Assembly: GCA_910890315.1 (NCBI GenBank)
Contig: CAJVGD010000046.1
Location: 62,001 to 126,000 of the forward strand
From: Serendipita indica DSM 11827
Taxonomy: Eukaryota; Basidiomycota; Agaricomycetes; Sebacinales; Serendipitaceae
Direction of reading: 5' to 3'
DNA length: 64,000 nt
A model generated the notes under the pieces. It ran no database searches. It was not told the origin of the DNA and saw only the letters and a list, made by a program, of their open reading frames with translations. Both the position numbers and the translations under genes were made by a program. This document shows, one piece after another, positions 9,411 to 34,979 of this stretch (position 1 is its first letter; each line of letters begins with the position of its first letter).

Positions 9411-9572
9411 CCTCAATGTAGGGCGACTAATCCTCAGAATTTGGAAACGCCAATCTGTTGGTCGGAATTGCATCTACACTGTGCTCCTACAATCAATGTG
9501 ATACAAACTCCGAGAAATCGAATATAAGAGGTTCCGAAGTCCTGGTCCAGACCAGCATGGCATTCCCGCTTG
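9411..9572 (-). repeat. 3'-terminal block nearly identical to NLR2 end (inverted copy of 22671-22832)
   Basis: About 162 bp covers the last 24 codons of NLR1, its stop and the noncoding flank ending at the block that reads cattgagg on the minus strand. By eye it matches the NLR2 end at well over 90 percent, including noncoding bases, whereas codons just upstream match much less. Confidence 0.8.
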
Positions 9573-12500
9573 CTAACCATAGGTGTGGCTGATAAGGGGT
9601 GTCAAGGGCGAAAAGTAATTGTAGATGTGTGGGGATCGGTACGATTGGACCTGGTGGGAATGCAGAGTGAATCCATCCATCCGCGTAGGTGAGAAGTGAG
9701 TATGGGTAAGCTTGGAGAGATTTTGGTTTCGTCAAGCTCCTATATCGTTTAATACTGCCTAATTCAACCTCCCAGACTAACGATCCAAGCACAATAAACT
9801 TCCCATCAGAGGAAAACCCCAGTTTACACTGTGTGGACACTGATTTGGGATCCTCGTTGTCTCCCTCGCCTACAAGCTTCCCTTTAGAATTATCCAGATC
9901 CCATAGCTGAATGCGTGGTTTTCCGAGGCGCCCAACTTGGTGAAGGACTGCCAAACTACGCGAGTCAGGAGAGAACGCCATAAGCCTTGCAGGAATATCA
10001 AGTGATATGATGGCGCTGCCATCCATTTGATAGACGAAGACGTGATTGGATGTAGCCACTGCCAGATGTGTGTCACTCGTCGTATATGAAGTAACAGATT
10101 CCGGATTCCTATACGCATTCATGATATGTCTACCAGTCTTATACTCCCAAACCTGGATAATATCCCCGTTCTCCACAGTATTCAGCAGGGCGAGGCGATC
10201 CCCACTTGAGGAAAGGCATACTCGTGCTGCAGGTGACCGTGGTGTGCCCCTGACTTTCTCGAAAGTCCTTGAAAGCTGCTTGTGCGTGACAAGACTGTAA
10301 AGGGATGCATTTCCCAACTCAGACCAGCATATCACTTCTTCAAAGTCTGGTGTGACGCAACTCTTCTTGTAGTAATCTGCATTTGAAAGCTCTCCCAAAA
10401 TCGCAATGAGCTCCAGTGTTCCGCTCGTTGTTGACCAAACACTCAGTACCTTGATGCCTTTCTGGGGACCAGATATTAGAACAAGCATGGATTTTTCTGC
10501 AATATATATTCCACTTCGGGTGTGATGATTGGATTTACGAGCCTTTGGACCGGTGGGACTGGATGCCAAATCATAGATGGATGCTTCCTGGACTTCTGTG
10601 CACACAAGGTGACTCCATTCACATGACAAGGTAACACAGCTTGAATTTGTGTATCCGCTAAAGAAGGTGTCGAGCTTGGTACCAGTTCCAACATCCCAAA
10701 CATTGATTTGTTCATCTACCGAGAGACCGGCAAGGCGCCGGGCGTCCGATGAAAACCATACTTTGCTAAAACTATGAGAAGTACGAACATGTCTTACGAT
10801 TCGTCCGGTATACTGATCACGTAAGACAATGCCTGATCCTTTGGGTGAGGCAGTTGCCATCATATTCCCTTGCGTCGCAAAAACAACACAGTGGGACGCA
10901 GGTTCATCGGGATCCACCATATTAATAACCTTTCCGGTGGTACAGTCCACAAGTGTAAGTGGTGCTCTTCCGTCTATGTCATATATTGCGCTCCTTGTAC
11001 CATCCAATGAGATCTGAATATCACGCTCGTCTGAAGGTGAGAAGGTAAGATGCTGAAGATAAATGCATCCACGATAACCAACAGGGTTTGTTGGATCACT
11101 ACTTGTAAGCCCATCATAAAAGACGAGGTCAGCTACAGAGGCACCATCCACGCGCCTGTCCCCTGTGGTTGTATAAACTGCACGGGTTCCGTTTGGGCAT
11201 AGCTTGAAGCGGTCTACAAACCACAAAAGCCCAATCATCTTTGGTGACTGTTCACCAGATAGTGTATGGTATAATGTTATGTAACTTGCCCAATTTCTAT
11301 CGAATTTTCGATAGTGCATCACCACCGCGAGATAAGGCTCATTGAGAAGAAAGAAAATGGATGCAATTGCAAGATTCAGGTGGCCTATGGATGGTCTAGT
11401 CTTCCAGAGAGTATCTCCACTAGAGATATCCAAGAGGTGTACCTCTTTGGCGGTTGTGGCGACTGCCAAGTATCGTCCATCTGGTGAAAACTCCAAAGCT
11501 TGCACAATAGCAGACGAGCCATTCTCAGTTGAAAATATTGTGGGTATAATTTCCCCTGTATCCGTGTCCCATAAGCGTAGGTGACCATTTGAGCCTGCCA
11601 TGACCACGCGGCTCACATCTGGCGAGAGTAAAGTATGGCTAATCCTCCCTGGAAAAGAAAGCGATACTGCTCCCATAGCCCATTCAAGGTAATTGGAGCC
11701 GATAGTTTTGACGACAGGGGAGCCAAGTTTTGCGGTAGACCTCACAAGAGGTGAAGCTGACGGGATAAGCCCAGGTGGAATAGTGTATGCGTGAAGTGCG
11801 GAATCTTGAATAGTATCTTGAAACCTGTGTACAAAATGCGCTGTGTGTAGTATGGTGAGCAAATCATCGGAGGTCTGCTCACAGAGGTCAGATGTTTTTA
11901 GACTGAGAAGAGTGGATTCACCATGGGAGACCGTGCTCTCGAGGCATCTCTTCTGATCCTAGCTCCAAGTCGCGCAAGACCGCGAACTCCATGAGCTAGA
12001 GCTCGTCGCCATCCCATGAACTCCGCCCAGTGTAGATAGTGATTCTGTAGGAAGGAGGCAGCCCTTCTCCAGTCAGACCACGATTCGTCAGAGGCTGAAA
12101 CGTGATGGGCCCAGTATGAGCTGGCGTATCGCAATGCCGCAGACGTTTTGGTTAAAATCCGGTTCTCCAAGTCTGCGACCTCTTCATTCCTCGGGAGGTG
12201 CGAAAAGCTTGATCGAATGTCAAGAATGTCATATTTGAGTGTCTTCTCTAGAATATCCAAGCAAGCCATAGCGAGCATCGAATGGGACGGCTCCATTTGA
12301 ACTAGAAATCCATTCGCGCGATCTTCATTCGACGCAATGAACTCCCTGAAAGTCGGGTGGAGTACCTTGATAGGTCGGTCCGGGTGTCCATCCTTGAACA
12401 CCGCACCGAGGTCCTGCACAAACTCGTTGACTGCGTCCACCTTTGGGAACAACGCGGAGATGGAATTGATGGAGATGGGCTGAAAGGTTGAGATGACTAC

Positions 12501-13785
12501 CTGCAATACTTTGCGAAAGTCTTCCGCGGCGGTTTTGTCCACAAGAGCTTGTTTGAGGACAGCAAGGTACAGCGCGTCGAGAGGATCTGCGACCTGGGAG
12601 TGGGAAAAGTCGTCCAGGAGTCGCTTGGCGAGATTGCTTCGTTTGAACGCTCTGCAGAATGTCGCGGCCCATATGAATACACCATCAGAGTATTGAACGA
12701 TTCGCTCCTGCTCCTTGATATCGAGCTGTTGGTCCAGATTTGCACGGACGTAACGCGCAATATCCTCATGAGAACGGTTATTGATGTCAAGAAGGTGTCC
12801 CTCGCATATATATACGGGATCGCTGAGTCGGTCGCCGATGTCTGGTATTGGTCTACTGGTCAGCAAGAGCTTGATCCTTGGCGCCGTCCGCAGTTCTTTG
12901 AGTACGACATTCAGCAGCCGCTGTCTCGATTTGAACTCGCAATTATCCAGAGCATCTATGACGAGGAATATACTCGTCGTGCTGCTCAGGCTCTGAAGTG
13001 GATCCAGGATGAGTCGGACGAACTGCATAGCGAAGTCCATTGTGTCTTCTGGGCTTGCGATCAGAATCGAGTTGATGGATGTAGCAAGCTGTGGATGGTT
13101 GGATACTATATCGTATGCCACGATACGGCAGAAATGACGAATATCTTGGTCCAACGCGACGTTGGGATTGAAGAAGAATCGACCTCCGAGTCGGCCCTGG
13201 CCTTGCCATTCTTTGGCTATCGTCGTGGCTACTGTCGATTTGCCCGTGCCGGCAGCATCACTTAACCAGAAGATTTGCTGTGGTGGTTCGCGTCATCTGC
13301 CCAGTTGCGGATTCTCGTCAAGATCTCAACGCGTGTTCCAGATTCGCAAATCTCGAGGTCAGTCCCATACGAGAGGCGGATTATTGATTCATCAATGCTG
13401 TCTGCTGGAAATGAGTGAGGGAAAGCCAGGTGTCGAAACGTACCGTTCCCTCTATGTAAATTGGAAGCAACCACCTCTTGTACGTCTCCTCTCAGCTCTT
13501 CTACGAGTACACCGATCTCCATGACTTTATCGACAGCAACCTGGTGGATATCAGGTGGATTTGATGAAATAGCGAGTAGCAGACATGATAGCGCTTTCGA
13601 AACGGGTCCATATCGACATTAGGAATCATTTGTCTTGCGTAATCTTCACCGACATTTGTTGTTGGGCCACCGGCCATCATCGATGGCTCGCAGATGCTGC
13701 TCGGTACACTTGTTGAAGAGTCTTGCGGCCCAGAACTGGCTTGGTGTCCTGCCTTATTTTGATTTGCCTCGAACATTCGCTCCAT
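9493..13785 (-). pseudogene. NLR1: NACHT-WD40 STAND receptor, frameshifted and lacking the helical N-domain
   Basis: Order from the N-terminus: a linker starting MERMFEANQNKAGH (ATG 13785); a short jump to KRYH with none of the helical exons seen in NLR2-4; a NACHT domain with P-loop DAAGTGKST, Walker B FLVIDALDN, LLLTSRP and the winged-helix-like region ending HPTFREFIASNED; then about 790 residues of WD40-type repeats (LRLWDTDTG, VHLLDISSG, IQLWDLDN), ending FSEFVSH. Introns: about 11886-11932 between NACHT and WD40, a 39-nt intron ending near 13405, and one at the YH junction. Compared with NLR2, one base is missing near 13278-13288, just before the P-loop, so the frame breaks there. Fungal STAND proteins of this layout (HET-E type) sense non-self and trigger cell death; that role is inferred from family. 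It is probably a decayed copy, or else a sequencing slip at one site. Confidence 0.8.
12205..13443 (-). repeat. NACHT conversion-like block, inverted near-identical copy of 18803-20046
   Basis: Begins at the 39-nt intron before IDESIIRLSYGT and ends at the codons for DIRSSFS. By eye the proteins agree at about 96 percent and the intron is also almost the same. Outside these borders the two genes drop to about 55-65 percent protein identity. Confidence 0.8.
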
Positions 13786-13929
13786 TTTGGGAAGGCTGAA
13801 AGGCCGCGTTCAAGATGGGTTGGTGCAGGTGGCTGACAGGAAGCCCCCGTTTATCTCGAGGGATGCTCACAGAAAACATCCTACTATTCCCCATTGTCTA
13901 TCAACCAGGTTCCGGACTGAATACAACGT

Positions 13930-16502
13930 TCAAGCCTGACGGATCAGGGAAGCCGCACCGTCAACGGAGTCACCTATTCGTGGTTTTCTTTTGACGTAGT
14001 GTAATAGAACCAGCAGGGATGCTGGAGTCATTCCTTCCATCCGCTTTGCCGCTCCCTTCGATGTTGTGAATAAGCATTCTTCCGCCTAGCTCTGTCGTAC
14101 TTACGATTGTGCGTGGCTTCATTCTCTGCAATCTTTCCTTGACTTCTGAGCTCAGACCGTGGATTGACGCATAATCAACGTTATCGGCAAGCTCAACCGA
14201 CTCGTCCCGTTCGAAGACCTCGACGTCTGTGCGTTGTCTCTTAAGGTAGAAATGATAAACAGCTTTGAGCAGTCAACCAGTTGTAATGACGTAAATGACG
14301 ACCATACTCACCCTCGATCCATATTCGGGTAAGGATTCGACGATCTACGCCCTCTAGACCAGGAATGGAAGACATGATTTTCTCCATTGGACAATTTGGC
14401 ATCTGTAGCAAGTCATAGGCGCTATATCACTGTTAGACTGGTCAAAAATCTTTTAGAGAGGAATTAACCTTCTCCAAACGCCATCATGATTGCACGCAAT
14501 CCCCTGAGAGGCCCAGCCCTGGGGCGTCTTGGTTGTCGCTTGTAGGACGTCCCGCACGCGAAGCATCTCTCCTTTCGTCCACTCGTATATCTTCCATCTC
14601 TCATCACTGATCGCGCCAGCCTTTCGAGCTAATGATTATGCATAAGCATCAAAAGGAAAATATTTCGCAATTAAGAACTTGCCCTGTTCTGTGAGTCGTA
14701 GATCTGCATTGTCCGAACGAATAGTCAACCGATACTCTGCTCGTGACGTGAACATGCGATCTACCACCAAGCAATTAGTAATTCTCTGTAGATGGCAACT
14801 ACGACGTACAAGGCTCTTCGACTCCTTTGCTTATCAAGTCGTCGATCATGACACCTAGATATCCGTCTGACCTTGACAGAATGAGAGGATGCTTCCGTTG
14901 AGCAGCAAGGCCAGCATTGAGTCCGGCCAATATGCCTTGGGCGGCGGCCTCTTCGTATCCTGTCGTGCCGTTGATCTGCCCAGCGAGGAATAATCCCTGA
15001 GGAGAATGAGGAAAACACCAAATGAGATATTTCCCTAATAAACTCACTGTAATGCGCTTTGTCTCAAGTGTAGGGTTCAACTCCCGTGGGTCAACGCAAT
15101 CGTATTCGACTCCATAAGCTGGCTTCACAATTTTGGCGCCCTCTAAACCAGGGATAGTTTTGATCATTGCCTCTTGGGCATCCTCTGGAAGCGAATTCGA
15201 GATACCGTTGGGGTAAATCAGGTCTACACAACCAGTATCAGAGCCGAACACGTAGCCATCCTTGGACGCACCCGAGTCGTAGCCTTCAGGCTCAAGCCAT
15301 ACCAAGTGGCTTTCCTTGTCCTTGAACCGGAGTATCTTGGCTTCCAGGCTCGGGCAATACCTTGGTCCCTTGACGGTTTCTCGGATGTGAATCGAACGAT
15401 GAAGGTTGGCAAGTACAACTTGACGAGTCGTTGCTGTCGTCCGCGTGAGATGGCACGGTATTTGATTGCTCTATATCCCACGTTAGCACTGGTGGTGCCA
15501 TATGGCCAATCACCCACCTTATTTGCCACCTCGTCTGTAATGAAACTGAAGGGCCAGGGGTCAATTTCCCCATCTTGTCGCGTCATCCCAGTGAAGTTGA
15601 TGGTATCCTTTGCCAGGCGTGCTGGAGTGCCGGTCTTGAGGCGACCCAGCTTGAAGCCGGCTTTATTTAGTGTGGAAGAAAGACCAGCAGGAGGCGACTC
15701 TCGGTCTCCCATCCGGCCAGCCGGAAACGAACGAAGACCTGGAGTGGCGGTTGAGTGATGTGCAATTGTCCTAGGAGCAAACGTACCAATGTGGATCTCT
15801 CCAGCAAGAAAAGTACCAGTGCAAATCACGACTTGACTACACGAAACAACTTCGCCCGATTCAAGCTTCACACCAGCGACTCTAGGCCTCTCAGACTCAT
15901 CCAGGCTGGGTTCTGCAAGAACAAGGTCGTGAACAGTTCCTGCCATCAAGGAAAGATTCGGATAGTTCTTGAGGGCGGATTGCATATGGAGTTTATAAAG
16001 CTTTCGATCAATCTGCGCACGAGGGCCCCAGACTGCTGGGCCCTTGGATCGGTTGAGCATCGTAAACTGGACTCCAGCAAGGTCTTTTGTATATTAGATG
16101 AAATAAATATGCTCGAGATATAAATTTACCGGCGATCTGACCCATAAGTCCGCCCAATGCATCGACCTCCCGGACAAGGGTTCCTTTACCGACGCCGCCT
16201 ATTGACGGATTGCATGACATCTCACCAATAGTGTCAAGGCGCTGAGTGAGGAGCAATGTACGTGCGCCGAGACGAGCAGCTGCAGCGGAAGCCTCGATTC
16301 CAGCATGGCCCGCTCCAATCACGCAGACTGGCACACTAAATCAGACCAGTTTACCAAATGAGGTCGACTCACCATCATAATCGAGTTTTGGACCTGAATT
16401 TGTTGCAAAACCACGCGCTTTTGAAGGTATGGAGTATTTTTCCTGGCAATGTTTGTTGAAAAGACTGTAAATGCGACCGGAAGATATGATAAATCGCCTC
16501 AT
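13930..16502 (-). CDS. MTO1: mitochondrial tRNA uridine 5-carboxymethylaminomethyl modification enzyme MTO1 (MnmG/GidA)
   Basis: FAD-dependent enzyme that, with MSS1/GTPBP3 (MnmE), modifies wobble uridine 34 of mitochondrial tRNAs. The N-terminus [19 protein letters not shown] with a following RGFATNS is rich in Arg and hydroxyl residues, a typical mitochondrial presequence. Then come the FAD motif [28 protein letters not shown] (GidA signature), [33 protein letters not shown] (second GidA signature) and [18 protein letters not shown]. The tail is [15 protein letters not shown] then [18 protein letters not shown]. The first intron joins YDV to CVIG with acceptor tgccag; the last intron (gtaagt...tcgaag) precedes GAAKRMEG. 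Stop TGA is at 13930-13932. All exons join without frame breaks. It lies between the inverted receptors NLR1 and NLR2. Confidence 0.95.
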
Positions 16503-16834
16503 AGCATTATTAGGGGTGTCGCTGGGAGACTAGCTGCCGTCCACTAGGTTGAACGGCTGATCCTCGAGTGTTGAAGAGTTCACGCTGGTAAACCACATGG
16601 AGCCGGTCCAAGATTGATTGGCTCAACTAAATAACTATGATAAATTGTAAGAACCTGTGTAGCTCCACCGCAGCTGGGTCAACGATCTTCCATTCGCTTA
16701 GCCTTGGCCGGCGGTCTAGACAAGACCTCTTGGAATCCGCTTGCTATGGGCGGAGCCATAAAAGTGGCAACAGTCGTCCCCTCAGATTTTGCAGGTTGAA
16801 CCGCGCCACTTCACCACATCCCGACAGGCTCATC
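16503..16834. other. divergent promoter region between MTO1 and the small membrane protein gene
   Basis: This 332-bp gap lies between two divergently transcribed starts (MTO1 at 16502, minus; membrane protein at 16835, plus). No further gene or clear TATA box is seen. Confidence 0.5.
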
Positions 16835-17451
16835 ATGAACACGACTCTCAATACCCAGCCGCTTCCACAGGCATCTATGGACACTTCCATCCATTGGATG
16901 TTGGACGAAAAGCGCGTTCAAACCGTTGATGGCAGCTGCGAGCACCGTCGCCATCACAGTTGCTCTAGACGCAAGCTTAATATCGGAATCATGATCCTTA
17001 TCATGTCTCTTCTCCTCGGTGCCCTTACTTTTATCTTCCTCAACCTGTTGGAAGCGACCGGCGATGACCTCCTTGGCGGATTCTGGAAGCGGGCCCTAGG
17101 AGATGGAGTCTCCGGTACTGGGAACGAATCTACATTTACGAGGAACAAACGTAAGTCGGCCTTTCTTAAAATCTCCGCACGCCATTTATCTTGTGACTTC
17201 AGTGTATATTATCGTCATTGTAGTCGGGCTCTTCTTCTGCCTAGTCGCGGGAATCATGCTTTCTGCTTGGTGCTGCAGGGGCGCCTTTGAGAATCCTTTG
17301 TGTTGTCCTTGCTACTTATGTGCATGCTGCGGAGGTCTTGGTACGTCGATGGTTGCCTGGCTGCGGAATGCCATTCATCTGACCTGCCCTTCTAGCTTGT
17401 CTTCAATGTATCAGTTGTGGCCTTTGCGCAGAACTCGCAGATCAGGCCTAG
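16835..17451 (+). CDS. small two-helix membrane protein with Cys-rich C-terminus, unrecognised
   Basis: Exons 16835-17150, 17203-17340 and 17396-17451 join to a 169-residue protein; both introns are GT-AG, 52 and 55 nt. It has a polar N-terminus, a first hydrophobic helix IGIMILIMSLLLGALTFIFL, a loop ending NKLY, a second helix YIIVIVVGLFFCLVAGIMLS, and then a tail with about 14 cysteines (CCRGAFENPLCCPCYLCACC, then CLQCISCGLC). The Cys clusters next to a membrane helix suggest palmitoylation or metal binding, which is inference only. I do not recognise the family. It starts 332 bp from the divergent MTO1 gene, so a shared promoter is possible. Confidence 0.7.
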
Positions 17452-17912
17452 CATACGCGCCTCGGCTATCACCAATGAACGCTTTCTGACACGGTTAGAG
17501 TTGTAGGAATTCTGTAGTCTATGAATCATGTTATCGTGCTCAGTAGTGGCAGCGAGTGTGAACATCACTCGTAGTCTCTGCTAGTTCTCCTTGAAAATTG
17601 CCGCCTAATCTCTCTGAACCAGGCCAGGACAAACGACACTCATCAAGGGATGACTCGAACCGGCCACCTTCCCTTTGCAAAATGCCATAGCTCTTCCGCA
17701 AGAATTATAGCATCTGCACCCATAGCTTCGCCTCCAAGTTCAGGGGTGCCGGTCATTACGTGAAGGTATTCCTGTCGATCTCGGTGGTCACCCAATAGAA
17801 GCTCGATTAGGCTTCTTGGTGTCCTATGCCATCTCTGGGATATGGCTGCAATGAGTTCAATTTCGGTGGTAGCTCAGAGATAACTTGATCTCCACCATTG
17901 TCGAGAATCACG
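17452..17912. other. intergenic region upstream of NLR2
   Basis: No gene, tRNA or repeat is evident in these 461 bp. A GGTTCGAGTC-like string near 17650 on minus does not fold into a T-arm. Confidence 0.5.
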
Positions 17913-20900
17913 ATGAAGAGGCTATTCAAGCCAAAGAGGATCAAAGAGGTGAAGGGGAATGCTTCCATTCCACCAAATTCGTCACAAGTGCACGGAGTAG
18001 TCTTCTCCAAGCGTCGGCAGTAGCAGGCGAATCATTGAGGGGTGCCAATGAAAGAGCTCGGGATCAGGTTACATCAAATGTCGACATATACTGGCTTCCT
18101 AATACTGAAGACACGTACAGAGCCACCGTTGACTGGCTCGAAAAAGGATTTACGCTACTTCGCGACACATCAGACGCAATGCCGGCCCTCACACATCTCC
18201 AATATACCTCTACACTTATCATTCGTGCACAAGAAACCTTGATGGTAGATATGAACGCAGTAATTATTTTGATTGACGAATCCTTGTAGGATGTTCACAA
18301 TGACGACCTTGCCTGGAATGAAATGATTAAAGATATACGACTTCATGCAATGCAGATTCAGGAAGGTCTTGAGAGACTGGAAAAGAAGGGCGTGTCCAAC
18401 TCTGATTACAACGGCCTCTTGGACGCTATGGACGAGTATATGGGGTGAGGTCTAATCGACATGTTTTGAATAGCTACTTACTCGGAACTAAGTGCTCTCA
18501 AATCTATCAGCAATGATGCACATGTCGCAATGAAAGAAGCTAGAGATCGCCTTGGAGCCAGCAGTTCACGATTTGGGACAACAAGGATCAACAAGGAGCA
18601 GATATATCGCCTCCGTGAAGCAGAATACACGGCATATCAGCGTTATCATGTCTGTTGCTCGCTACTCTGACGAAATTATCTGATATCCATCAGGTTGCTC
18701 TCGAAGTTCTCCTAAACCAAGTCATGGGCGCAAACGCGCTAGTTGACGAGCTGAGAGAAGACGTGCGAGAAGTAATTGCTCCTAATTTACATGAAGGGGA
18801 TGGTATGTCTCGACACCTGGCTTTCCCTCACTCATTTTCAGCAGACGGCATTGATGAATCAATAATTCGCCTCTCGTATGGGACTGATCTCGAGATTTGT
18901 GAACCTGGAACACGCGTTGAGATCTTGACGAGAATCCGCAACTGGGCAGACGACGCGAACCACTCACAGCAGATCTTCTGGTTGAACGACGCTGCCGGCA
19001 CGGGAAAGTCGACAGTAGCCACGACGATAGCCAAAGAATGGCAAGGCCAGGGCCGACTCGGAGGTCGATTCTTCTTCAATCCCAACGTCGCGTTGGACCA
19101 AGATATTCGTCGCTTTTGCCGTATCGTGGCATACGATATAGCATCCAATCATCCACAGCTTGCTCCATCTATCAACTTGATTCTGATCGCAAGCCCAGAA
19201 GACACAATGGACTTCGCTATGCAGTTCGTCCGACTCATCCTGGATCCACTTCAGAGCCTGAGCAGCACGACGAGTATATTCCTCGTCATAGATGCTCTGG
19301 ATAATTGCGAGTTCAAATCGAGACAGCGGCTGCTGAATGTCGTACTCAAAGAACTGCGGACGGCGCCAGGGATCAAGCTCTTGCTGACCAGTAGACCAAT
19401 ACCAGACATCGGCGACCGACTCAGCGATCCCGTATATATATGCGAGGGACACCTTCTTGACATCAATAACCGCTCTCATGAGGATATTGCGCGTTACGTC
19501 CGTGCAAATCTGGACCAACAGCTCGATATCAAGGAGCAGGAGCGAATCGTTCAATACTCTGATGGTGTATTCATATGGGCCGCGACATTCTGCAGAGCGT
19601 TCAAACGAAGCAATCTCGCCAAGCGACTCCTGGACGACTTTTCCCACTCCCAGGTCGCAGATCCTCTCGACGCGCTGTACCTTGCTGTCCTCAAACAAGC
19701 TCTTGTGGACAAAAATACCGTGGAAGACTTTAGAAAAGTGTTGCAGGTAGTCATCTCAGTCTTTCAGCCCATCTCCATCAATTCGATCTCCACGTTGTTC
19801 CCAAAGGTGGACGCAGTCAACGAGTTTGTGCAGGACCTCGGTGCGGTGTTCAAGGATGGACACCCGGACCGACCTATCAAGGTACTGCATCCGACGTTCA
19901 GGGAGTTCATTGCGTCGAATGAAGACCGTGCAAACGGATTTCTAGTTCAAATGGAGCCGTCCCATTCGATGCTCGCTATGGCTTGCTTGGATGTTCTAGA
20001 GAAGACACTCAAATATGACATCCTGGACATTCGTTCAAGCTTTTCAGTCCTTCCGAGGAGCAAAGAGGTCGCAGACTTGGAGACTCGGATCGCAAGGAAG
20101 ACCTCTCCGGCACTGCGATATGCAAGTTCGTACTGGATTCACCACGTCTCTTCCTCTGAGGAGGCATGGGATTGCTGGAGAAGAGTAACTAATTTCTTGC
20201 GTGACCACCATCTACACTGGGCAGAATTCATGGGATGGCGAGGCACCCTAGCTCATGGAATTCGTGGACTTTCGCAAATTGGAACCAAAATCGGGAGAGA
20301 GGCGCTGACCTTGTCTCCCCTCGTATTGTATTTCTCTGTTATTCTCTCTCTAACCTATTTGATACCCTGTACAGAACTCGGACGATTTCTTCACCTTGCG
20401 ACACGCGACACATTTTCTACTTAGGTTCCAAGATATCATCCACACGTCTCCACTTCACGCATACACCATTCCCTCTGAATTGGTCCCAACAAACTCCCCT
20501 CTTGTGAGATCGAATGATCCTAAGACTTGCTCGGCAACTGTCAAAATCATTGGTAAAGATCACTTGGACTGGATCATGGATGCGATCCCTCTCGCTTTAC
20601 CAGCCGGAATTAAGCGTGCTTTGCTATCCCCAGACGGAGCACGTGTAGTAATGAGCGGCTTGATAGGATATCTACGCTTGTGGGATGCCAACACAGGAGA
20701 GCTCATTCCCACCTCATTCTCTGCGGAAGAGGAGCCTTACACTGTTGTGCAAGCTCTAGAGTTTTCCCCGGACGGGCGATACTTGGCGATTGCAACAGAC
20801 ATCAGCGAAGTGCACCTTCTGGATGTTTTGACTGGTGACACTCTGTGGAAGGCGAAAACTTACTTGGGGCACCTGCATCTTCGTATTGGAGCCATGTGTT

Positions 20901-22751
20901 TTCTTCCGAATGAATCGTATCTTGCAGTGGTGCTACACTATAAAGGATTTGATAGGATGTGGCAGAGTTATGTGATATACTATCACATAGTCTCTGGTGA
21001 GCAGTCTACCAAGACTGTTGGTCTCTCCAGGTTTGTGGATACCTTCAAGGTTTGTCCAGGCGGAACTCGGGCAGTGTATACGGCTAGAGGATCCAGGCAT
21101 ATTGATTGCGTCATTCTGGCTGAGCTCGTTTCTTATGAAGGCTTGGAGTCGGACCAAGATGACTACGATGGATGCGTTTACTTATTACAATTGACCATTC
21201 CGTTGTCCCTCAATCGCGTAATTGAGATCTCAATAGATGGGACAACGAGTGCTATATACGACCCAGAAGGAGGGGCAGCACTCATACTTCTTGACTGCAC
21301 GACCGGAAAACACATCGAAATGGTGGACCTTGATGAACCTTACTCACAGTGTGCTGTCTTCGCACCACAGGGAGATTTAATGGCAACCGCCTCGTCCAAA
21401 GGTTCAGGGATTCTGCTTCGTGAGAAGCATAGTGGGAGAATTACAAAGCGTTTTGGCACTACTCATAGTTTTAGCAATATCTGGTTCTCGTCTGATTCTC
21501 AGCGCCTCGCTAGTCTTTCAAATGATCAGCGAATCCGTATTTGGGAGGTCAAGAGTGGCGCCCAGCTTGAAACCTTCTTCGATGGGTATACACCTGGACC
21601 TCGTGTTAGCTTGTCGCACGATTGGACCCGATTACTATGCATCCAAGGCCAGGAAGCACTAGTTTACGACTTGACATCCAAGGTTGCTGGTCCAAAAAGC
21701 CGTCAATCCAACCAAAATTATAGAACGGGAGAATATATTGCAGAAAACTCTATGCTTGTTGTGCGGAGTGGTGCATTTCCAGCCACCAGAGTATTGAGTA
21801 TTTGGTCGACAGCAAGTGGAACACTGGAACCCATCGCAACATTAGGAGAGCTTCCAAGTCGCGGGGTGGAGACTTGCATTACACCGGACCTCTGCGAAAT
21901 ATTATGTTGGTCCTCGCAAGGCGATATATCCCTCTATAGTCTCGTCACTTACAAACGACTCCCGGTATCCTTTGAGAATGTCAAAGGAACTCCTCAATCG
22001 GCTGCAGCAAAGCTATGTTTTACTTCAAACGGAAGGCTCGTTGCGCTCTTGAATACGTCCAATAACACAGAGGCTGTTCAGGTGTGGGAATATAGGACTG
22101 GCAGGCATATCATGGACACGCAGCATCGAAAAGACACAGTCAAATCATATACACTGAGCGATACATATCTGGCGGTGTCTACGTTCGACCAGGTTCAAGT
22201 CTACCGAGTGATAGACGGCAACCTCGTAGCAGCTGAGAGGATATCCTCCACAAAGCTTATGACATTTTCTCCCAATTCAGACAAATTGGCCGTATTTCGA
22301 AGCAAGGGGTCCTCTAAGGGACCTCTTCTCCAAGCATGGGCTGTCAGCCATACCGGGATTGAGGCTGATGGGTGAGGCAGAGAGCGAGAATGAGGATCAT
22401 ACGCTTAATGATAAGTACAATTTGGGATTCTCAGCCGACGGGATGCTCATAGTGTACGGGTCGCTTGTCTGGGAGCTCGGCTCTGAAGGACTTCGAAGAT
22501 ATCAGAGCTTGACACTACCAAAGTCTCTTGAGGACTATCCCCACTCGCTTCTCACGTATGCAAACGGGTGGATTCACTCTGCGTTTCCACCGGGTCCAAT
22601 CGTACCAATCCCAACTCATCTACGACTACTGTTTACTACCGGTGCCTTCTACGATGCCCAGATGTGGTCGGCGAGCGGGAATACTATGCTGGTCTGGACC
22701 AGGACTTCGGAACCTCTTATATTCGATTTTTCGGAGTTTGTATCACATTGA
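17913..22751 (+). pseudogene. NLR2: NACHT-WD40 STAND receptor with frame breaks
   Basis: The ATG at 17913 opens MKRLFKPKRIKEVKGN, like the start of NLR4. This frame closes after about 36 codons and the homologous helical region (DTYRATVDWLEKGFTLLRD) continues in another frame, so a break lies in the linker. Exons DVHNDDLAWNEMIKDIRLHA and ARDRLGASSSRFGTTRINKE follow, then the NACHT domain: P-loop DAAGTGKST, Walker B FLVIDALDN, LLLTSRPIPDIGD and HPTFREFIASNED. After an intron (donor CTC-gtattg, acceptor tgtacag) come WD40-type repeats: LRLWDANTG, VHLLDVLTGDTLW and VWEYRTGRH. The WD40 frame breaks again near 22300-22375 and resumes to FSEFVSH. By family, a NACHT-WD40 sensor of non-self; this copy looks decayed. 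It is the inverted partner of NLR1. Confidence 0.78.
18803..20046 (+). repeat. NACHT conversion-like block, partner of 12205-13443
   Basis: Starts at a 39-nt stop-free intron (gtatgt...tttcag) and ends at the DIRSSFS codons. Near identity to the NLR1 block in coding and intron bases stands against lower similarity on both sides. Confidence 0.8.
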
Positions 22752-22832
22752 TTGTAGGAGCGCAGTATATATGCAATTCCGGCCGACAGATTGGAGGTTC
22801 CAAATTCTGAGGATTAGTCGCCCTACATTGAG
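22671..22832 (+). repeat. 3'-terminal block shared with NLR1 (inverted copy of 9411-9572)
   Basis: Covers the final codons of NLR2 (SASGNTMLVWTRTSEP onward), the stop and about 80 bp of flank. Match to NLR1 is very high through the noncoding part and stops abruptly after cattgagg. Confidence 0.8.
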
Positions 22833-22837
22833 GGTCA

Positions 22838-22978
22838 CATGGATTCATTCCAATCCCAACGCATATACGGCTACTTTTCACCTTGCAGACCTCTTACGAA
22901 CACCAGATGTAGTCGGCTAGCGGAAATAGTATGCTCGTCTGGACGGATGCATTTTCACCACTCATATTTGAATTCTAA
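22838..22978 (+). pseudogene. relic of a second WD40 C-terminal end
   Basis: Right after the shared 3' block, bases 22841-22978 again resemble an NLR WD40 tail. One frame reads SASGNSMLVWTDAFSPLIFEF and ends at TAA 22976-22978, aligned to SASGNTMLVWTRTSEPLIFDF of NLR2, with a stop where the Trp before SASGN is expected. The middle of the tail is shortened. It looks like the original end of NLR2 left behind when a new end was copied in upstream. Confidence 0.7.
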
Positions 22979-26897: not shown

Positions 26898-29604
26898 TCA
26901 ATGCACCAATGCCAATCCCAACATACCATCCTGTCCATGAGGCCCAAACGCCCTTTCATTGTGCGCGTTTGCGTTGGCCTGTCGATCCCGGACGCGCGGT
27001 TGTCGTACACGTACTGTCCACTCAATCTCATTATACGAAGGCAACGCCTCTCCAACACCATTTCCCGTTTCCTCTACACCCAAGTCAATACCCAAATCAC
27101 GACCGTCGACGCCCAGTTGCTCAAAGTCTTCAATGGGCACGGTACGTGTAATAGGCGAACGAGTGTGTGTTTCGAGACGAGGAGAAGAATGGACATTGTT
27201 GGTGGTGTGAAGAGTAAGATGCGGTTGAGCGAGACGAGGCGAGGATTGTAAAAGTGGATGTACCTGCGCACGCGGAGATGCATGAGGTCGAGATCCGGTT
27301 CCAAAGAAATCGGCAATTCCGAGTGCTTCGAGGTCCGATGCAGATGGAGCAGGTACCTCTTGGAAGATGCGCGTAGGTCGACCCGCGCCAGACGCAGACG
27401 CCGAGTCTCGTCTTGATTGGGTTACTGCTGGCATCGATTCTCGTCTGGTATGTTGGGGTTGAAGGGTCATGGTGGTGCTAGACTCTCGTCGGTGCTGGGA
27501 AGATGGCTGGGAAGACGACGACTCCCGCCTCTGCTGGGGCATGGTTGAACTTGCGTTGGAGGCGTACTGTCCCGTCTCGAACATGATGTGATACATCTCC
27601 GTCGTATACTGCAGGGGAGATGGTCCACTAGAGCTGGTATTCATGTCCGTCTCCAACAAAAGCGCATTCTCTCCTTGATGAGGCAGCTTGCTGGTTTGTG
27701 TAAGAGGCGAGCGCGGCGGGAGCGTGTAGGGAGTGATCGTCGCATCCCTCGACAAGGTCGAACCAGATCCAGAACCAGACGACATCGAATGAGCAGGCGT
27801 CTGATGTGCATACGTCGTCACAGACGCCGGGGCCGATGGAGGCGGGGGAGGTGGGTGCAAAGGTGTCGGCGGAAGTTGATAGGGTGTGATAGCGCTTGGG
27901 CCGGGCTCTGGCTCCCGCTCCCGCTCTTCATCATTGGTTCTCGTGCGTGAATTGCTTTTACCATGACCACTTGTACTAGCCGATTTGGTACTCTGCGAGT
28001 GTGAATGGTGATGGAAAAATGCAAGCGAGCTGAGAATTGGACTCGGGAGCTTGTTGGCAATCTTGCGTGGGATTGCACCATGAGAATGTGAACGGCCCAT
28101 GGCATGACCTGCGCTCGTGTTATTGGTCGAACTCGCGGGTGGTCGCGTCGGTGTCGGCGCATACGTCCTTTGGGACGCGACGTTTTGCGTAGACACGTGG
28201 GTACTCGGAGATGTAGGAGAGGGCGCATAATGAGTAGACGGCGAGGTGAATGGGATATACGTCATGGGTGACTGGGTAAACGTTGCCGTGGAACTACTCG
28301 AAGCCGACGTCGGAGAGCGAAGTTGACCATAGGATGTCGAGTGGCTCAGGGTCCTATGCTCGTGCGAGGCCGGCAAAGGGATCTGGAATGGCACCGTGGC
28401 CTCTTCATTCTCTGCCCGTTGATCACGGTGAGAGCCATTGAGGACTTGATAATTCGCCGTTGCAAACGTGTCCTGGTTCAACGGACTGTGTACACCCATG
28501 TGCGAAAACGGAGTCACGGGACTGGCAGGGAGAGACGATACTGAACCGCCGGCGACACTCGAACTCGAACTGGCACTCGAAAAGGGTGACGGACACGCGC
28601 TGAGCGGTTTAAGCAGCGGCGAGGCTCTCATTCTCGGCGAATTTGTCACGGGCTTGAGCATGGGCGAGTGCGGTGGCTTGCTGGGAGAGTATGGGGTCGT
28701 GGGCGACGGTACGTCTTCATCCTCGAGCAAGTCGAGAACGGGCCTTGTTCCTGGTGTCCTGTGGCCTCCACTGCGGGTACTTCGCGTCGAAGTAGAGCGC
28801 TGACAAGCGGCGGCAGGCGAAGTGGAGAAGAGGGGTGAATACGAGCCAGACGAGGACGAAGAGATGGTGGTTGGTGTAGTTGGAGCGAGGAAATGCGACG
28901 AGTTTCTAGTGGTGTTCAAAGGCGTATTGTGGCCCGAGTGATCCTTGCGGAGGAGCAAGATGGTGGTGGCGATCAAGTACTCTAACAAGGAGACGTCGAC
29001 ACCCTTGTAGGTATCTGATTGATTTGAGGAGACGGACGAAGTGTAAATGCTGAGCCGGGGGAGGGCCGTGGTGTGGCCTGGCTCGAGGGTTGCCACGGCC
29101 CTGTGCGCGGTACAGGCATGCGAGCAGAGGGTGCACTCGTAGTGAGAGCCGACATGTTTCCATTTGAGCGCGTTTGACTGTCCAGGCACGTGAAATTTAC
29201 GCGATCTAACCATCCGGTCGTTGGTCAGTCTCCAAAACGAACACTCTGCCAGGAAGAGGCTGCAACTTGGGGGAGGGGGGGGTTTCATTTACTCACCCGC
29301 CTAGGACGGTCTTTTTCAAGAAAGCGGATGAAAAATGGGTGCTACCACTGATGGAAACGAGTGTTTTGTTCGAGGTAGAAGACCATTTGATAGCAGCGAC
29401 GAGGCGGGCGGTCGGGTCAGGATGGGCGTCGTGGTCAAGACGATAGACAGAGGTATCGTCGTTTGCAGATTCGATGCTGAAGAGTGGTCTGAGTGTGTTA
29501 TGATTGTCGTCTGCGTCGAGGACGAGCGTGTCGAGGACCGACAACGAGCCAAGACGAAGAGAGACGAGGGGCAACGGGAGGAGCGGAGGAAATGTAGGGC
29601 ACAT
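26898..29604 (-). CDS. DUF6593-like N-terminal domain with long disordered Ser/Pro-rich tail
   Basis: Exon 1 begins at ATG 29602-29604 (MCPTFPPLLPLPLVSLRLGS) and joins VLGG to LFLAECSFWRLTNDR through an intron gtgagt...ttgcag near 29237-29297. The N-terminal 190 residues carry YRLDHDAHPDPTARLVAAIKW, ALKWKHVGSHYECTLCSHAC and SLLEYLIATTILLLRKDHSG, a layout resembling basidiomycete DUF6593. The remaining 600 or so residues are low complexity, with repeated RRES/RRDS motifs (QQRRESSSSQ, QHTRRESMPA, SRRDSASA) that could be kinase sites, and short helical pieces (DLEALGIADFFGTG, PIEDFEQLGVDGRDLGIDLG). Function unknown. A homopolymer of C near 29270 lies inside the intron. Confidence 0.65.
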
Positions 29605-29949
29605 GCACTGTCAGACAATTCTGTATATTTTTTAAATATTTGTGCAAATGTGCTGTCGGTCGTGGGCGGCGGCAAGCCTTTTGCTTTGCGTCTGACTGCG
29701 CGTCGACTGGAGCCGGGTTTATAAGCAGAAGGGCAACGGCGCTACCACGACCCACCCTTTGTGTCATCCTCCGAGCCGCCAACTGGCGCCGGAAGATCGG
29801 AGGTGGTGACGGGAATGACCCTATTCTGGGTGTAATAGCCCCTATCTTTCTTTTCTATTTCCGACTCGCCGGCCGTCCTCTTTGACCACAGATCGATCGC
29901 TGGCAGGGGACTCTATATTTTCCGGCCTTTGGGTGCTGCCGGGCTCCAA
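29605..29949. other. intergenic gap, no gene seen
   Basis: 345 bp between the DUF6593-like gene start and the 3' end of NLR3, both on minus. An AT-rich run near 29625-29640 may belong to the promoter of the former. Confidence 0.45.
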
Positions 29950-32900
29950 TTATGCGCGCTCGGGAAGCCTCCAGGCTGGCACCAGCACCAAGATGACAGG
30001 CGAATAGCACTCATCCCATACTAGCACCCGCCATCCCCGGACACTGTAGCGCCCATACGACAACCACGGGCGCATATACGTGGCCACCGGAATTTCTCTA
30101 CGGGGTCCATATGCACCACTCCATATCCATCCGTCCTCATATCCCACAATCAAATCCCGGCTTCCCTTGCATCTCTCCATCACCACTTGGTCCCCTTGCA
30201 TCCCTAATTGCCAGACTCGGTATCCATAAACCACATTCTCGTCAAACACCAGCGATTGTCTCTCAAGAAAACTTGCTGTAAAGTCTTCTCGTGCGACCAT
30301 TCCCATCGCCCGTTCTCCCACTTTCCACACCTCGAGCCCTTGTTTGGTAATCGTCGCTACCATCCTTCCGTCCTTGGAGAATGCAAACCGAAAGTAGAGT
30401 CCAAATAAATCATCCCTGTCACTCTTGATCCACTCCTTTTGCTCCAAATCATACACAGCAAGTTGCTTCTCCTCCTCCAGCTTGCCAACAATCCTCGTTC
30501 CATCAGACGAGAGCGCTACATGGTCACCTAGCCCAACCGTTCCTCCTGCTTCCCAAATGAACTGGCCACTCGGATACGCCCACACCTGGGTAAACCTCTG
30601 GTTCGAACACGCTAGGATTCGTCCATTCGCCGAGAATACCTTGGTGCCAAGCCCACGCGCTACTTCGTCCCGCATGTTTTCCAGTCGAATCAAAAGTGGC
30701 TCCGGTCGACAGGTGGTCGAGTAGAATACTAATCGCCCAGGGAGAGTGAGCGCCATCGACTGTCCGTCTGGACAGACAATGCATTCGCTCAATCCTTGCA
30801 GTTCGTCCATCGTCTCTACAATCTCCATTCTCTCCTCTTCACCTGGGACGATTCGCCAGATGCATGTCGGATGCTCCGTGTCAGAGTAAAACGGTCCGAT
30901 GAACCGCATATCATCAACAAACACGCCCCTTGTCGGTGGAGACTTGATCTTTTTCTTCTTCCTCGTGGCGGGGGAGACGACGGTAATCGCCCCTGTAGGC
31001 GTCAGGGTATCGTAGACGCAAATCTCATTGCTGCCCATCCACGAATATGCAAACAATTTGCTCCAATCTTCTGAGAGCACGACATGCTCGCCATCACCCC
31101 CCATGCCGACATATCCACCAAACCGACGGGAAACGATAGAGTGCGTAGCCACATCCCACACATCAATCGTTTCCTCACTCGATAGTACAGCCAGGCGCTT
31201 CCCGTCGAGAGAGAACCACGCGTCCAGGGTCTGCGCTCTCGACCGGAGAAAACCAACATCACGTCCCGTTCGCCTATCCCGCAGGACGACATCTGACCCT
31301 GTCCGCGGGATACATGCCATGATTTCTCCAACGGGCGCGAATCGCACAAGATGGAATGATGGCGACGACAGCGGCGGCGGCGACTCGTCTACAATTTCGT
31401 CTCCCGTCCTCGCGTCCAAGAGAACCATGGGCGCTTTGACGTCTTTTCTTCCTAGACGATTGAGTCGAAAGGTGATGGCGAATCTGGTACTATCCGCCGA
31501 TACAGCAATGGAGAGGGTGAGGAGCTCCATGTACGCCATCTCTATCCGAGAGAGCTGTCTAAATGTCTCCATATCATACACAAACGCCACCCCGACATTG
31601 GCGGTTTCCCGTTCCCCAACAAACACTGCACGTTGTCCGTCTGGGGAGAATTCAAAATCCAGAATGGCTTCGTCTTCAAATAAAACCCTCTGATCCATCG
31701 GGACTCCCACATCCGTATCGTAAAAGCTGACTATCGTCCTCCAGTCCACACCTTGACCATGACACCGCGTCAAGAGTGCCAAATAGGACTTTGTAGGTGA
31801 GAACCGAAGGATATGACCCCACGAATTTGGCTCGTACCACGGCTTCAAGTCGCGCTTGTAATTGCGTTCCCAAATCGGACGTCCGAGCGATGCGTCCCAT
31901 AAATGGAGCATACCAGGACCCGTCGCATACGCTAGACGCGTCCCATTGATGCAAAGTTCTGCGTAGCGAACTGCTCGTCCACCACGTTGTCCTTCGATAG
32001 GTGTACCAACCATGCTCCCGGTATCCGTGTCCCAGAGACACAAACTTCCCTCGGCACCAACGCAGAGCACTCTATCCGCGTCCCGTGAGATGCGTACAGT
32101 CTGCAATCCGTCTTTGTTACCAGTGAGTAGGATCTGATGATCCGACGACGTTGCCGTCTCGGAAGTGATGACCTTTAGTGTCGGGATTGTCTTTACCGTG
32201 CGTACTTTCCTCAGTAGAGCAGAGTCACGGCGAGACAGGGCCACAGGAACTGTGTACGTATGTAAAGCAGATTCAGCTATGAGTGCTTGATACTTGAGTA
32301 AAAAATGGAATGCCTGCTGGACGATTGCCTTGTCCCACGGGCGAATCTAGAACATGTCAGCACTTGTTCGAGATATAATCAACGGCTTTACTTCTGTGAT
32401 AGAACTACGCTTTACCATTCGATTCAGTTGAGAGAGGGCGTAAAGCGCGTGGCCAACCATCCCTCTCCAACTCATCAGTTCTACCCAATGCACAAAGTTT
32501 TCTTGTAAGAACAGCCTCAGTCGCGTCCAATCACTCCATGCGCCATCTGAAGACGTGATATGGAGAGCCCAGTACGCGCTAGCATATCTCACTGCGGCTG
32601 AGAACTGTTTCTCCACCAGCGCTCCCAGATTCGCAACGTCTGCATTCCGTGGGATACCACCATCCCCCCTTGCATGTAAGACTTGCAAGAGATCAAACTC
32701 TAGGACACGAGCTAGGACATTCATGCACGCTTTCGCGAGCATTTCATGCGATGGGTCCAACTCTACAACAAACCCATTCGCCCGGTCCGGGGTCGACGCA
32801 ATAAAATCTCGAAAGGTAGGGTGTAGGACCTTGATGGGACGATCTGGGTGTCCGTCCTTTAGCACGCCCGCGAGATCCTGCACGATTGTATCGACCGCCT

Positions 32901-34785
32901 GCACACGTGGAAAGAGTGCACAGATGGTGTTAATAGAGATGGGTTGAAATGCAGAAATGATGATCTGCAGTATTCTTCGAAGCTCGTCCTTTATTCCCGT
33001 ATCGACTTGACGGGCTTGTTCGAGCACATCGAGGTAGAGTGTATCCAGTGGGCTCGTAACTTGAGCATGGGAGAGATTATCTAGAATTCTCCTTTGCACT
33101 CGTGGGTCCTTGAAAGCTCGATAAAATGTTGCGACCCAGATAAAGAGGCCATGGGCATGCTTAGTGATCCGCTGCCGGTCCTCTGTGGTCAGGTCTTGGA
33201 GCCTGGCATCGACATAGAGTCTGATGTCTTCATAAGGTATATTATCAACGTCGAGAAGCTGAACATCGTCGCCACAAATCATCGGCGACCCATGCAAAGT
33301 ATCGACAATATCCTGAAGAGGTCGGCTCGTGAGAAGTACCCTCAGGTGCGGTACTGATGAGAGTGTAGCGAGCATAGTCTTGAGCAAAGATTGCCTGTCG
33401 TAGTACTCGCAATTGTCCAGCGCGTCGACGACGAGAAACACTGGCCGTCTACCGACCTCTCGCAGAGGTTCCAGCACAAGTCGTTCAAATTGGACATGGA
33501 AGCTTGAAGAGTTTTCTTGAGAAGATAGTATTGCAGCTTCCACCCTATTGGCTATGTTGTCAAAGTGAAATGCAATGTCTTTGGCGATCGCCCGACAAAA
33601 GTAATGAATCCCTCGGTTAGGCACGACGTTTGGAGTGAAGAAGAAGCGACCGGCGAGTTGATTTCGGGATTGCCACTCCTTGACCATTGTTGCTGCGACA
33701 GTTGATTTGCCAGTGCCGGCCGCGTCCTTCAGCCAGAAGATTTGCTTTGCCTCTGGACGCATGTTTGATCCCCAGTCTTCAATCCTCATGAGTACATCAC
33801 GCCTTGTTCCTTTTTCACAAGCTTCGAGCTCGGTGCCATAGAACGATTGCATGATCGAAGCAAGCGCACCATCTGATTATTGGTCAAAGAATACTCGCTA
33901 TCATTATATTTCACCCACAGTCGTCGTTCCTCTGAGTCCAAGATAGCGAAATTTCAACCTCCTCACGGATTTCGCGAATCGTCTTGGCTGCATCCCCAAC
34001 TCTACTATACAGCACAACAGAGGCAGACGCCTAGATGCAGAATTAGAAGATATTGTGCGCAAATACGATAGAACTCACCCTGTACCGTTGGAAAGCAGTT
34101 GCCTCACGTTCACGGAGCTGCTCAATCCGTTTCTGATCGATTCGCATCATCCCAAACCGTGATGCTCGTGGGTATGGCATTGCAGCGCTTAAACCACGTT
34201 CCGCTTCCACCATGATATCCTGGATCACTCTAAAAGCTTTGTGAAAACGACCGAAATGCCACCGGAACCACTCACCCGAGGTACTGGCCTATCGCTTCGC
34301 GTAGTTGAGCATTCCCGTTTAGTTCTAGCTTACTATGCTGCCTATCCATAATGTAAAGATCGATGACCTCAGCGTGGAGCTGAATTTCCGCGATCAATTC
34401 TGCCCAGGAATCGCTCATGTCGTGGATTTCCTAGATCCCGTTGAGAGTAGGAAGACGAGGCATCTTTACTTACCCGCGCAATCTGAATCCCACTGAGTAA
34501 TGCCGCGTATGTGGCCTTGAGAGGCTCGCGGGTATCCTCTGCGAATTGAGCGCTTTGCTCAAGCCAGTCGCACAGCGCTCTGTACGCGGTCATGGAGTTC
34601 ACAAGGGAATAATCGTTGATTACACCGCTATCGGACGCCAATGTGTCGCCGGCTTTCGAAATTGATGGTTGATTGATATTGGATTGTACATCCTGAAGGC
34701 TGCGGAGCTCTGTACTAGATGAGATTTTGCCATATGGAATACTGTCGGTAGAAGGATCCTTCTTGCGCCTGAATAACTGCCTCAT
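29950..34785 (-). CDS. NLR3: NACHT-WD40 STAND receptor, reads through intact
   Basis: ATG 34783-34785 opens MRQLFRRKKDPSTDSIPYGK. The helical N-region contains AYRALCDWLEQSAQFAEDTR, then in later exons EIHDMSDSWAELIAEIQLHA and RIDQKRIEQLREREATAFQR. The NACHT domain has QIFWLKDAAGTGKSTVAATM, FLVVDALDNCEYYDRQ, LLTSRPLQDI, LFIWVATFYRAFKD and HPTFRDFIASTPDRANGFVV. A phase-0 intron (gtaaag...ttctag, about 32302-32350) leads into a single WD40 exon of about 760 residues with LCLWDTDTG, MLHLWDASLGRPIWE, FSPDGQRAVFVG and IDVWDVATHS, enough for two propellers. By family, ligand-induced oligomerisation through NACHT drives cell death or defence. It is the most diverged in WD40 of the four receptors and the only one without a visible break. 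NLR4 lies 195 bp upstream on the same strand. Confidence 0.85.
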
Positions 34786-34979
34786 ATAACTGAGCTTCGC
34801 GGGGGGGTGGAAGTTACGGAATGCGTACCGTAGTATTACACCACTTGGTGAGATTATCTATTCTTGTGAAGATACGCTTTACACTCGGACATCTTAGTTT
34901 TTAGACTGGTAGTATCCATTGGAGAGGTCATACATTGTATTGAACATAAAAAAAGCAAGTTTCGAGCTCTTTGGCGTCG

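What the first reader, a model, noticed from the sequence alone, without database searches (positions are those of the whole stretch)
12205..20046. Sharp identity jump: NACHT block looks recently gene-converted
Between 12205-13443 and 18803-20046 the proteins agree at about 96 percent by eye and even the 39-nt intron is nearly the same. Immediately outside, the linker and WD40 parts fall to about 55-65 percent. Near-identical neutral intron bases argue for recent copying of this module rather than selection alone.
Basis: partly seen in the sequence, partly recalled or inferred. Interest (0 to 1): 0.78.

Follow-up and report, generated by a model that had tools for sequence, protein, structure and literature searches.

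The report
Gene-converted NACHT module in fungal NLRs
Two neighbouring fungal immune-receptor-like genes have nearly the same central engine but very different sensor ends, best explained by one copying its middle part onto the other, and some other neighbouring receptor genes in this genome show signs of the same.

Summary
Gene A (minus strand) and gene B (plus strand) are inverted NACHT-WD40 (NLR-type) paralogues on either side of a GidA/MTO1-like gene. Identity is 96.2% over A 13436-12202 / B 18810-20045 and 63.5% in the WD40 part; nothing aligns upstream of about 13600.

Synonymous divergence is 0.10 in the block and 0.66 in WD40 (Fisher 4e-51); a more distant paralogue, D, shows no such step against A or B, so constraint alone is rejected. 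The intron in the block is 92% identical, the intron just outside 49%.

There is more than one event: a nested core (2 mismatches in 535), a second tract over the gene 3' ends and 3'UTR, and a 67-bp patch where A matches a third, degenerate copy C. A has one and B two apparent frameshifts.

Among 25 NLR genes compared, 3 of 8 neighbouring pairs show a NACHT-only synonymous-identity tract at every setting tried; 2-6 of 213 non-neighbours pass, by setting. Best reading: short-tract ectopic gene conversion among neighbours, centred on the NTPase module, the reverse of Podospora, where WD repeats are homogenised. Direction and advantage are unproven. Main rival: recent duplication, then WD40 replacement.

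The parts
9411..13620 (-). Gene A: NACHT-WD40 (NLR-like) gene. N-terminal region does not align to that of B; 1-nt deletion relative to B near 13282, just before the P-loop; probable pseudogene
   Evidence: alignment and three-frame translation; Pfam NPHP3_N 2e-22, NACHT 7e-9, WD40; DNA search with 13444-14100 finds only itself (that search also missed the 71% match to B, so it is insensitive)
17914..22833 (+). Gene B: paralogue in inverted orientation; apparent frameshifts near 17980 (against C) and 22360 (against A), read by eye
   Evidence: Pfam NPHP3_N 2e-24, NACHT 1.5e-8, WD40 propeller hits
12202..13436 (-). A side of the high-identity NACHT tract (96.2%)
   Evidence: maximal segment 47 mismatches/1236, 0 of 2000 shuffles; pS 0.10
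18810..20045 (+). B side of the high-identity NACHT tract
12534..13068 (-). Nested core, most recent tract: 2 mismatches in 535 (B 19179-19713)
13405..13443 (-). 39-nt intron of A at the edge of the tract, 36/39 identical to B 18803-18841
18803..18841 (+). 39-nt intron of B
11863..11912 (-). Next intron of A (limits read by eye), outside the tract, 49% identical to the B intron (about 20326-20375): neutral control
9411..9558 (-). Second high-identity tract: last codons plus about 80 nt of 3'UTR (A side)
   Evidence: 8 mismatches/148, 0 of 2000 shuffles; UTR 75/82 A-B but 32/82 A-C and B-C
22686..22833 (+). Second high-identity tract, B side
13069..13135 (-). Patch where A mostly equals copy C and B differs: probable short A/C conversion tract
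   Evidence: A-C 70/73 (13137-13065) against 439/523 elsewhere in the exon (Fisher 0.004); scan p 0.0004
9584..12201 (-). Linker and WD40 part of A, outside the tract (59.6-68.6% nt, pS 0.58-0.66 to B)
20046..22685 (+). Linker and WD40 part of B, outside the tract
14000..16520 (-). GidA/MnmG (MTO1)-like gene lying between the inverted pair
   Evidence: Pfam GIDA 3e-38 on ORF 15224-16060; outer limits read by eye, MTO1 name recalled

Best explanation
A and B are old paralogues, an inverted pair with NACHT blocks 5.3 kb apart. Homologous recombination repair used one as template for the other, so that about 1.2 kb covering the NTPase (NACHT) module and most of its leading intron was overwritten, without the linker, the WD40 sensor or the N-terminal exons. 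Shown: a local drop in synonymous and intron divergence with sharp edges, absent against the outgroup paralogue. Shown: at least two age classes in the block, a second tract at the 3' end, and a short A/C patch, so exchange was repeated and involved a third local copy. Inferred: conversion without crossover; tract position set by where paralogue identity is high enough for strand invasion (NACHT is the most conserved part compared); possibly kept because a shared engine is tolerated or useful while sensors diverge. Direction unknown. The block still evolved under constraint after the copying (dN/dS about 0.16); the frameshift in A is a later or separate lesion.
For: pS 0.10 inside against 0.66 outside, with outgroup control flat. 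0 of 2000 shuffles for the block and for the 3' tract. Intron inside 36/39, intron outside 25/51. Fourfold sites A-B 11/157 in NACHT against 98/184 in WD40; A-D 74/126 against 109/173. Nested core 2/535 against 53/728. A/C patch. 3'UTR 75/82 A-B against 32/82 with C. Same-direction pattern in some other neighbours: WD40 minus NACHT pS is +0.58 (A/B), +0.29 (C1a/b) and +0.13 (C27a/b), against median -0.04 and 99th percentile +0.086 in 264 non-neighbour pairs. DNA searches found no other long close copy of either WD40 part: A's only other match is B (67%); B's are A (67%), 411 nt of C (72%) and two pieces of D (65-67%).
Against: No related species or strain could be compared, so the ancestral state is inferred only from paralogues. 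The 3' tract (9% divergent) and the block outside the core (7%) have about the same divergence (p=0.43), which also fits one recent duplication followed by replacement of the WD40 part. WD40 synonymous sites are near saturation, so the age contrast is only a minimum. 5 of 8 neighbour pairs do not pass the segment test at every setting, and E/F shows nothing. Assembly or polishing errors cannot be checked without reads.
Confidence: 0.78

Rival explanations
1. Recent whole-gene duplication: the block and the 3' tract are what is left of a young duplicate, and the WD40 part (and 5' end) of one copy was later replaced by recombination with a more diverged paralogue.
For: 3' tract and non-core block have similar divergence (16/173 and 53/728, p=0.43). 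Domain swapping around highly similar NODs is reported in fungi (PMC4986451, section 12 read). C10a/C10b here have unrelated N-termini and a jump to 97% at the NACHT start.
Against: No full-length donor for either WD40 part was found in this assembly; the best long match of each is the other, at 67% (the DNA search skips common words, so absence is not proven). No homology beyond the gene ends. The nested core and the A/C patch still need conversion. Some other neighbour pairs also show NACHT-centred tracts.
Confidence: 0.14
2. Purifying selection alone keeps the NACHT block alike.
For: NACHT is the more conserved part (A-D 73% aa against 50% in WD40).
Against: Synonymous and intron sites show the step; A-D and B-D show none; 264 non-neighbour pairs show no excess.
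Confidence: 0.02
3. Assembly artefact: chimeric contig or cross-polishing between two similar genes produced the block or its core.
For: Core has only 2 mismatches in 535; reads not available; single-base frameshifts in A and B could be sequencing errors.
Against: 53 further differences lie on both sides of the core inside the block; the A/C patch and graded divergence are not expected from collapse; the same kind of pattern occurs at some unlinked pairs.
Confidence: 0.04
4. One copy received the block from an unsampled allele or strain (introgression or allelic recombination), not from its neighbour.
For: None here; recalled: fungal NLR loci can be highly polymorphic.
Against: The closest sequence found in the assembly is the inverted neighbour; not otherwise testable.
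Confidence: 0.02

Closest known systems
Zebrafish NLR-B30.2 family (Howe et al. 2016, PMC4852459; passages seen)
   Same: Conversion acts differently on the NACHT and the recognition domain; NACHT homogenised within groups, shown by synonymous divergence by domain
   Different: Nearly 400 vertebrate proteins with LRR/B30.2, NACHT and B30.2 on separate exons, and B30.2 also converted across groups; here WD40 receptors of a fungus, short local tracts between neighbours, WD40 not homogenised between A and B
Podospora anserina nwd/hnwd genes het-d, het-e (PMC1805685, PMC2873952; passages seen)
   Same: Fungal NACHT-WD40 paralogues exchanging sequence
   Different: There the WD repeats undergo concerted evolution and NACHT domains are more divergent; here NACHT is copied and WD40 diverges; no tandem-repeat array found in either WD40 part
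Fungal NLRs with highly similar NOD and different N-terminal domains (Dyrka et al. 2014, PMC4986451; section 12 read, other passages seen)
   Same: 80-99% identical NODs in otherwise different genes, including a Piriformospora indica pair (80.8%); the A/B block and the C10a/b pair look like this
   Different: That section infers N-terminal swaps and gives no synonymous or tract analysis; here both flanks differ and the shared part behaves as a conversion tract

Membership tests
Fungal NACHT-WD40 NLR (STAND) gene | NACHT-type P-loop NTPase with Walker A | tested here: met
   NPHP3_N 80.5 and 87.0 bits (cut-off 24.8), NACHT 36.2 and 35.1 bits (cut-off 26.7) for A and B; GTGKST motif read in both
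Fungal NACHT-WD40 NLR (STAND) gene | C-terminal WD40 propeller | tested here: met
   PF00400 32.7 and 35.3 bits (cut-off 27), ANAPC4_WD40 46.7 and 46.2 bits (cut-off 22.9)
Fungal NACHT-WD40 NLR (STAND) gene | Recognisable N-terminal effector domain | not tested
   N-terminal exons of B and C were aligned but not scanned against a family library: one search failed and the repeat left that piece out
Fungal NACHT-WD40 NLR (STAND) gene | Intact reading frame | tested here: not met
   A: 1-nt deletion before the P-loop; B: apparent frameshifts at both ends. Alternative splicing or sequencing error not excluded. D reads open from NACHT to the end apart from an intron-like break
Ectopic gene conversion tract | Locally low synonymous and intron divergence with abrupt edges | tested here: met
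Ectopic gene conversion tract | Step absent against an outgroup paralogue | tested here: met
   A-D p=0.11, B-D p=0.16
Ectopic gene conversion tract | Direction and ancestral state shown with orthologues | not testable with these tools
   no relatives held for this genome
WD-repeat concerted evolution (Podospora nwd type) | WD repeats homogenised within and between genes | tested here: not met
   A-B WD40 pS 0.66; no tandem repeat array at score 40 or more in either WD40 part

The most novel reading that the evidence does not exclude
In this NLR-rich fungal genome, neighbouring NLR genes recurrently exchange their NACHT engine by short conversion tracts while sensor and N-terminal parts diverge: an engine-homogenising, sensor-diversifying mode opposite to the WD-repeat shuffling known in Podospora NLRs.
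Probability: 0.4. Interest if true: 0.68.

Novelty: new variant of a known kind. Interest (0 to 1): 0.48.

Why it matters
It shows that in fungal NLR families the NTPase module can be the homogenised part, so NACHT trees can misdate or misgroup receptors, and it gives a testable mode of receptor evolution: common engine, divergent sensors. The test needs only other strains or sister species.

Tried and rejected
RIP as source of differences: block changes are 44 transitions and 10 transversions with no strong one-way C-to-T excess; CpA context was not tested. GC-biased conversion: GC3 is higher in NACHT than in WD40 in 20 of 25 genes, but a 5'-3' gradient would explain this as well. Direction of transfer from distance to C or D: A and B are about equally far, no answer. 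Structure model of the B NACHT part: mean pLDDT 57, mainly the NTPase core confident; Foldseek returned general AAA+/STAND ATPases with low TM-scores, Apaf-1 at rank 40; no PDB sequence match to the profile at E 0.01; weak support for an NTPase fold only. Rows '3p patch CDS' were in a wrong frame and are dropped; nucleotide counts are used instead. The exon-4 rows are poorly aligned and not used. The species is not known from any call; P. indica / Serendipita is a guess from genome size and NLR number.

Segment test on neighbours: the count at p<=0.01 changes with setting and seed. It was 5 of 8; it was 6, 3 and 3 of 8 for three settings (non-neighbours 6, 4 and 2 of 213; 4 of 213). Only A/B, C1a/b and C19a/b pass at every setting. 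Of the 4 non-neighbour hits, one lies wholly in NACHT, two straddle, one (the strongest) lies wholly in WD40. 79 of 300 pairs and 28 of 300 pairs were left out for too few comparable codons.
Full report
What is there. The window is part of a 1.34-Mb contig (G000:C44:62001-126000) of an unnamed 24.7-Mb genome with short introns. A family search scored 150 of 258 candidate NPHP3_N-type NACHT loci and listed 150 matches, so the number is a lower bound. That size and number resemble Piriformospora indica (25 Mb, PMC3192844 passages; 274 NLRs, PMC4986451 passages), but no call names the species. Gene A (minus, 13620 to 9411) and gene B (plus, 17914 to 22833) are NACHT-WD40 genes in opposite orientation with a GidA-like gene between them. 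A third copy, C (G000:C44:42435-44501), keeps N-terminal exons, the first half of NACHT and the 3' end but lacks the part between. A fourth, D (G000:C10), is full-length and reads open from NACHT to the end apart from an intron-like break.

Check of the observation. Columns 13436-12202 of A against 18810-20045 of B hold 47 mismatches in 1236; no shuffle of 2000 reaches this. Around it: 71% just upstream, nothing alignable beyond about 13600, 68.6% in the linker, 63.5% in WD40. The 39-nt intron differs at 3 of 39 sites; the intron after the linker differs at 26 of 51 columns (p=1e-5).

Test of the interpretation. Synonymous divergence (Nei-Gojobori proportions) A-B: NACHT 25.0 of 248.5 sites, WD40 306.6 of 464.0; Fisher 4e-51. 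The same regions for A-D: 171.5 of 248.7 and 348.3 of 467.7 (p=0.11); for B-D p=0.16. At fourfold sites A-B differ at 11 of 157 (NACHT) and 98 of 184 (WD40). So the step is not seen against D, and it is seen at silent and intron sites: constraint cannot make it. Divergence that did accumulate in the block is mostly silent (dN/dS about 0.16; 25 of 248 against 14 of 822, p=3e-8), so the block was under selection for most of the time since copying.

More than one event. Inside the block a 535-bp core has 2 mismatches while the other 728 columns have 53 (p=5e-11); shuffles within the block also reject even spread (0 of 5000). Near the gene end a second segment, A 9558-9411 / B 22686-22833, has 8 mismatches in 148 (0 of 2000 shuffles); it includes 3'UTR where A-B is 75/82 but A-C and B-C are 32/82. 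Between 13135 and 13069 B is the odd one at 7 of 10 informative sites, with A equal to C (scan p=0.0004), and A-C rises to 70/73 from 439/523 elsewhere in the exon (p=0.004). This is what repeated short-tract conversion among three local copies would leave.

State of the genes. A lacks one base relative to B just before the P-loop, which puts the P-loop in another frame; B shows apparent frameshifts in its first exon (against C) and near 22360 (against A); C has lost the second half of NACHT and most of WD40. These are read from single assembled sequences without RNA or reads. The three local copies look degenerate; D does not.

Is it general? WD40 minus NACHT pS: A/B +0.58, C1a/b +0.29, C27a/b +0.13, C40a/b and C10a/b +0.06, C19a/b +0.03, C1c/d -0.01, E/F -0.04; 264 non-neighbour pairs have median -0.04 and 99th percentile +0.086. 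So 3 of 8 neighbour pairs exceed that percentile. In a segment test on synonymous third positions the best segment lies wholly in NACHT in 8 of 8 neighbour pairs (in E/F it is three codons and not significant, p 0.996), and A/B, C1a/b and C19a/b are significant at every setting (p about 0.001); the total at p<=0.01 ranges from 3 to 6 of 8 by setting, against 2 to 6 of 213 non-neighbours. At the middle setting this is 3 of 8 against 4 of 213 (Fisher 0.001). 'Non-neighbour' includes some pairs on one contig tens of kb apart. The pattern therefore recurs, but is strong in a minority and rests on a small sample.

Mechanism. Most likely: double-strand-break repair in one paralogue using its inverted neighbour as template, giving tracts of roughly 0.1-1.2 kb. 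NACHT is the better-conserved stretch (A-D 72% nt against 58% in WD40), so invasion should be easiest there; the tract edges near the intron and the linker may simply be where identity falls. Whether selection also favours a shared engine is not shown. A crossover between inverted copies would have flipped the 5.3-kb spacer; this cannot be tested without relatives.

Rivals. Recent duplication with later replacement of WD40 explains the equal divergence of the two tracts, but needs a donor that was not found in the assembly and still needs conversion for the core and the A/C patch. Constraint alone is refuted. Assembly error is unlikely but unchecked.

Known ground. Domain-restricted conversion in NLR families is described in zebrafish, where NACHT is converted within groups and the recognition domain behaves differently (PMC4852459, passages). 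In Podospora the reverse holds: WD repeats evolve in concert and NACHT domains are more divergent (PMC1805685, passages). Dyrka et al. list fungal NLRs with 80-99% identical NODs and different N-termini (PMC4986451, section 12). A 2025 Sordariales study says clusters could promote conversion (PMC12258605, passages). Searches on conversion with NACHT/WD40/fungi, concerted evolution with NOD-like receptor/NACHT, Serendipita indica NLR (0 papers), conversion with NLR/homogenization (0 papers), conversion with NACHT/NLR/exon, Piriformospora with NACHT/WD40, ectopic conversion with fungi, and conversion with NLR/basidiomycete listed no paper that, by title and abstract start, reports NACHT-restricted conversion in a fungus. 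The library holds only open-licence papers and most listed papers were not opened.

Noticed in passing
L030 (G000:C40:2065800-2075300) and L032 (G000:C10:514301-522300): Non-neighbour NLR pair with a synonymous segment of 118 codons at 89% wholly in the WD40 part: a possible WD40-side exchange between contigs.
   Followed up: no
L042 and L043 (G000:C10:603600-617400): Tandem NLR pair with unrelated N-terminal parts (about 34-56%) and a jump to 97% identity at the NACHT start, then mostly 82-98% through WD40: an N-terminal domain swap.
   Followed up: partly
window 22605-22699 and 22850-22944: Partial direct repeat (78%) of the end of gene B just downstream of it.
   Followed up: no
window 13600-13900, minus strand: Gene A's N-terminal region matched nothing else in the genome by DNA search (insensitive), while B and C share homologous N-terminal exons.
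   Followed up: partly
L044 and L045 (G000:C19:327400-339400): Neighbouring NLR pair with identity mostly 69-88% in the 5' part and early NACHT, dropping to about 50% some 360 bp into NACHT: a breakpoint inside the NTPase domain.
   Followed up: partly
window 26898-38928, minus strand: Further NLR genes (E, F; 50-67% aa to B's NACHT) in a local cluster; no sign of recent exchange between E and F.
   Followed up: partly
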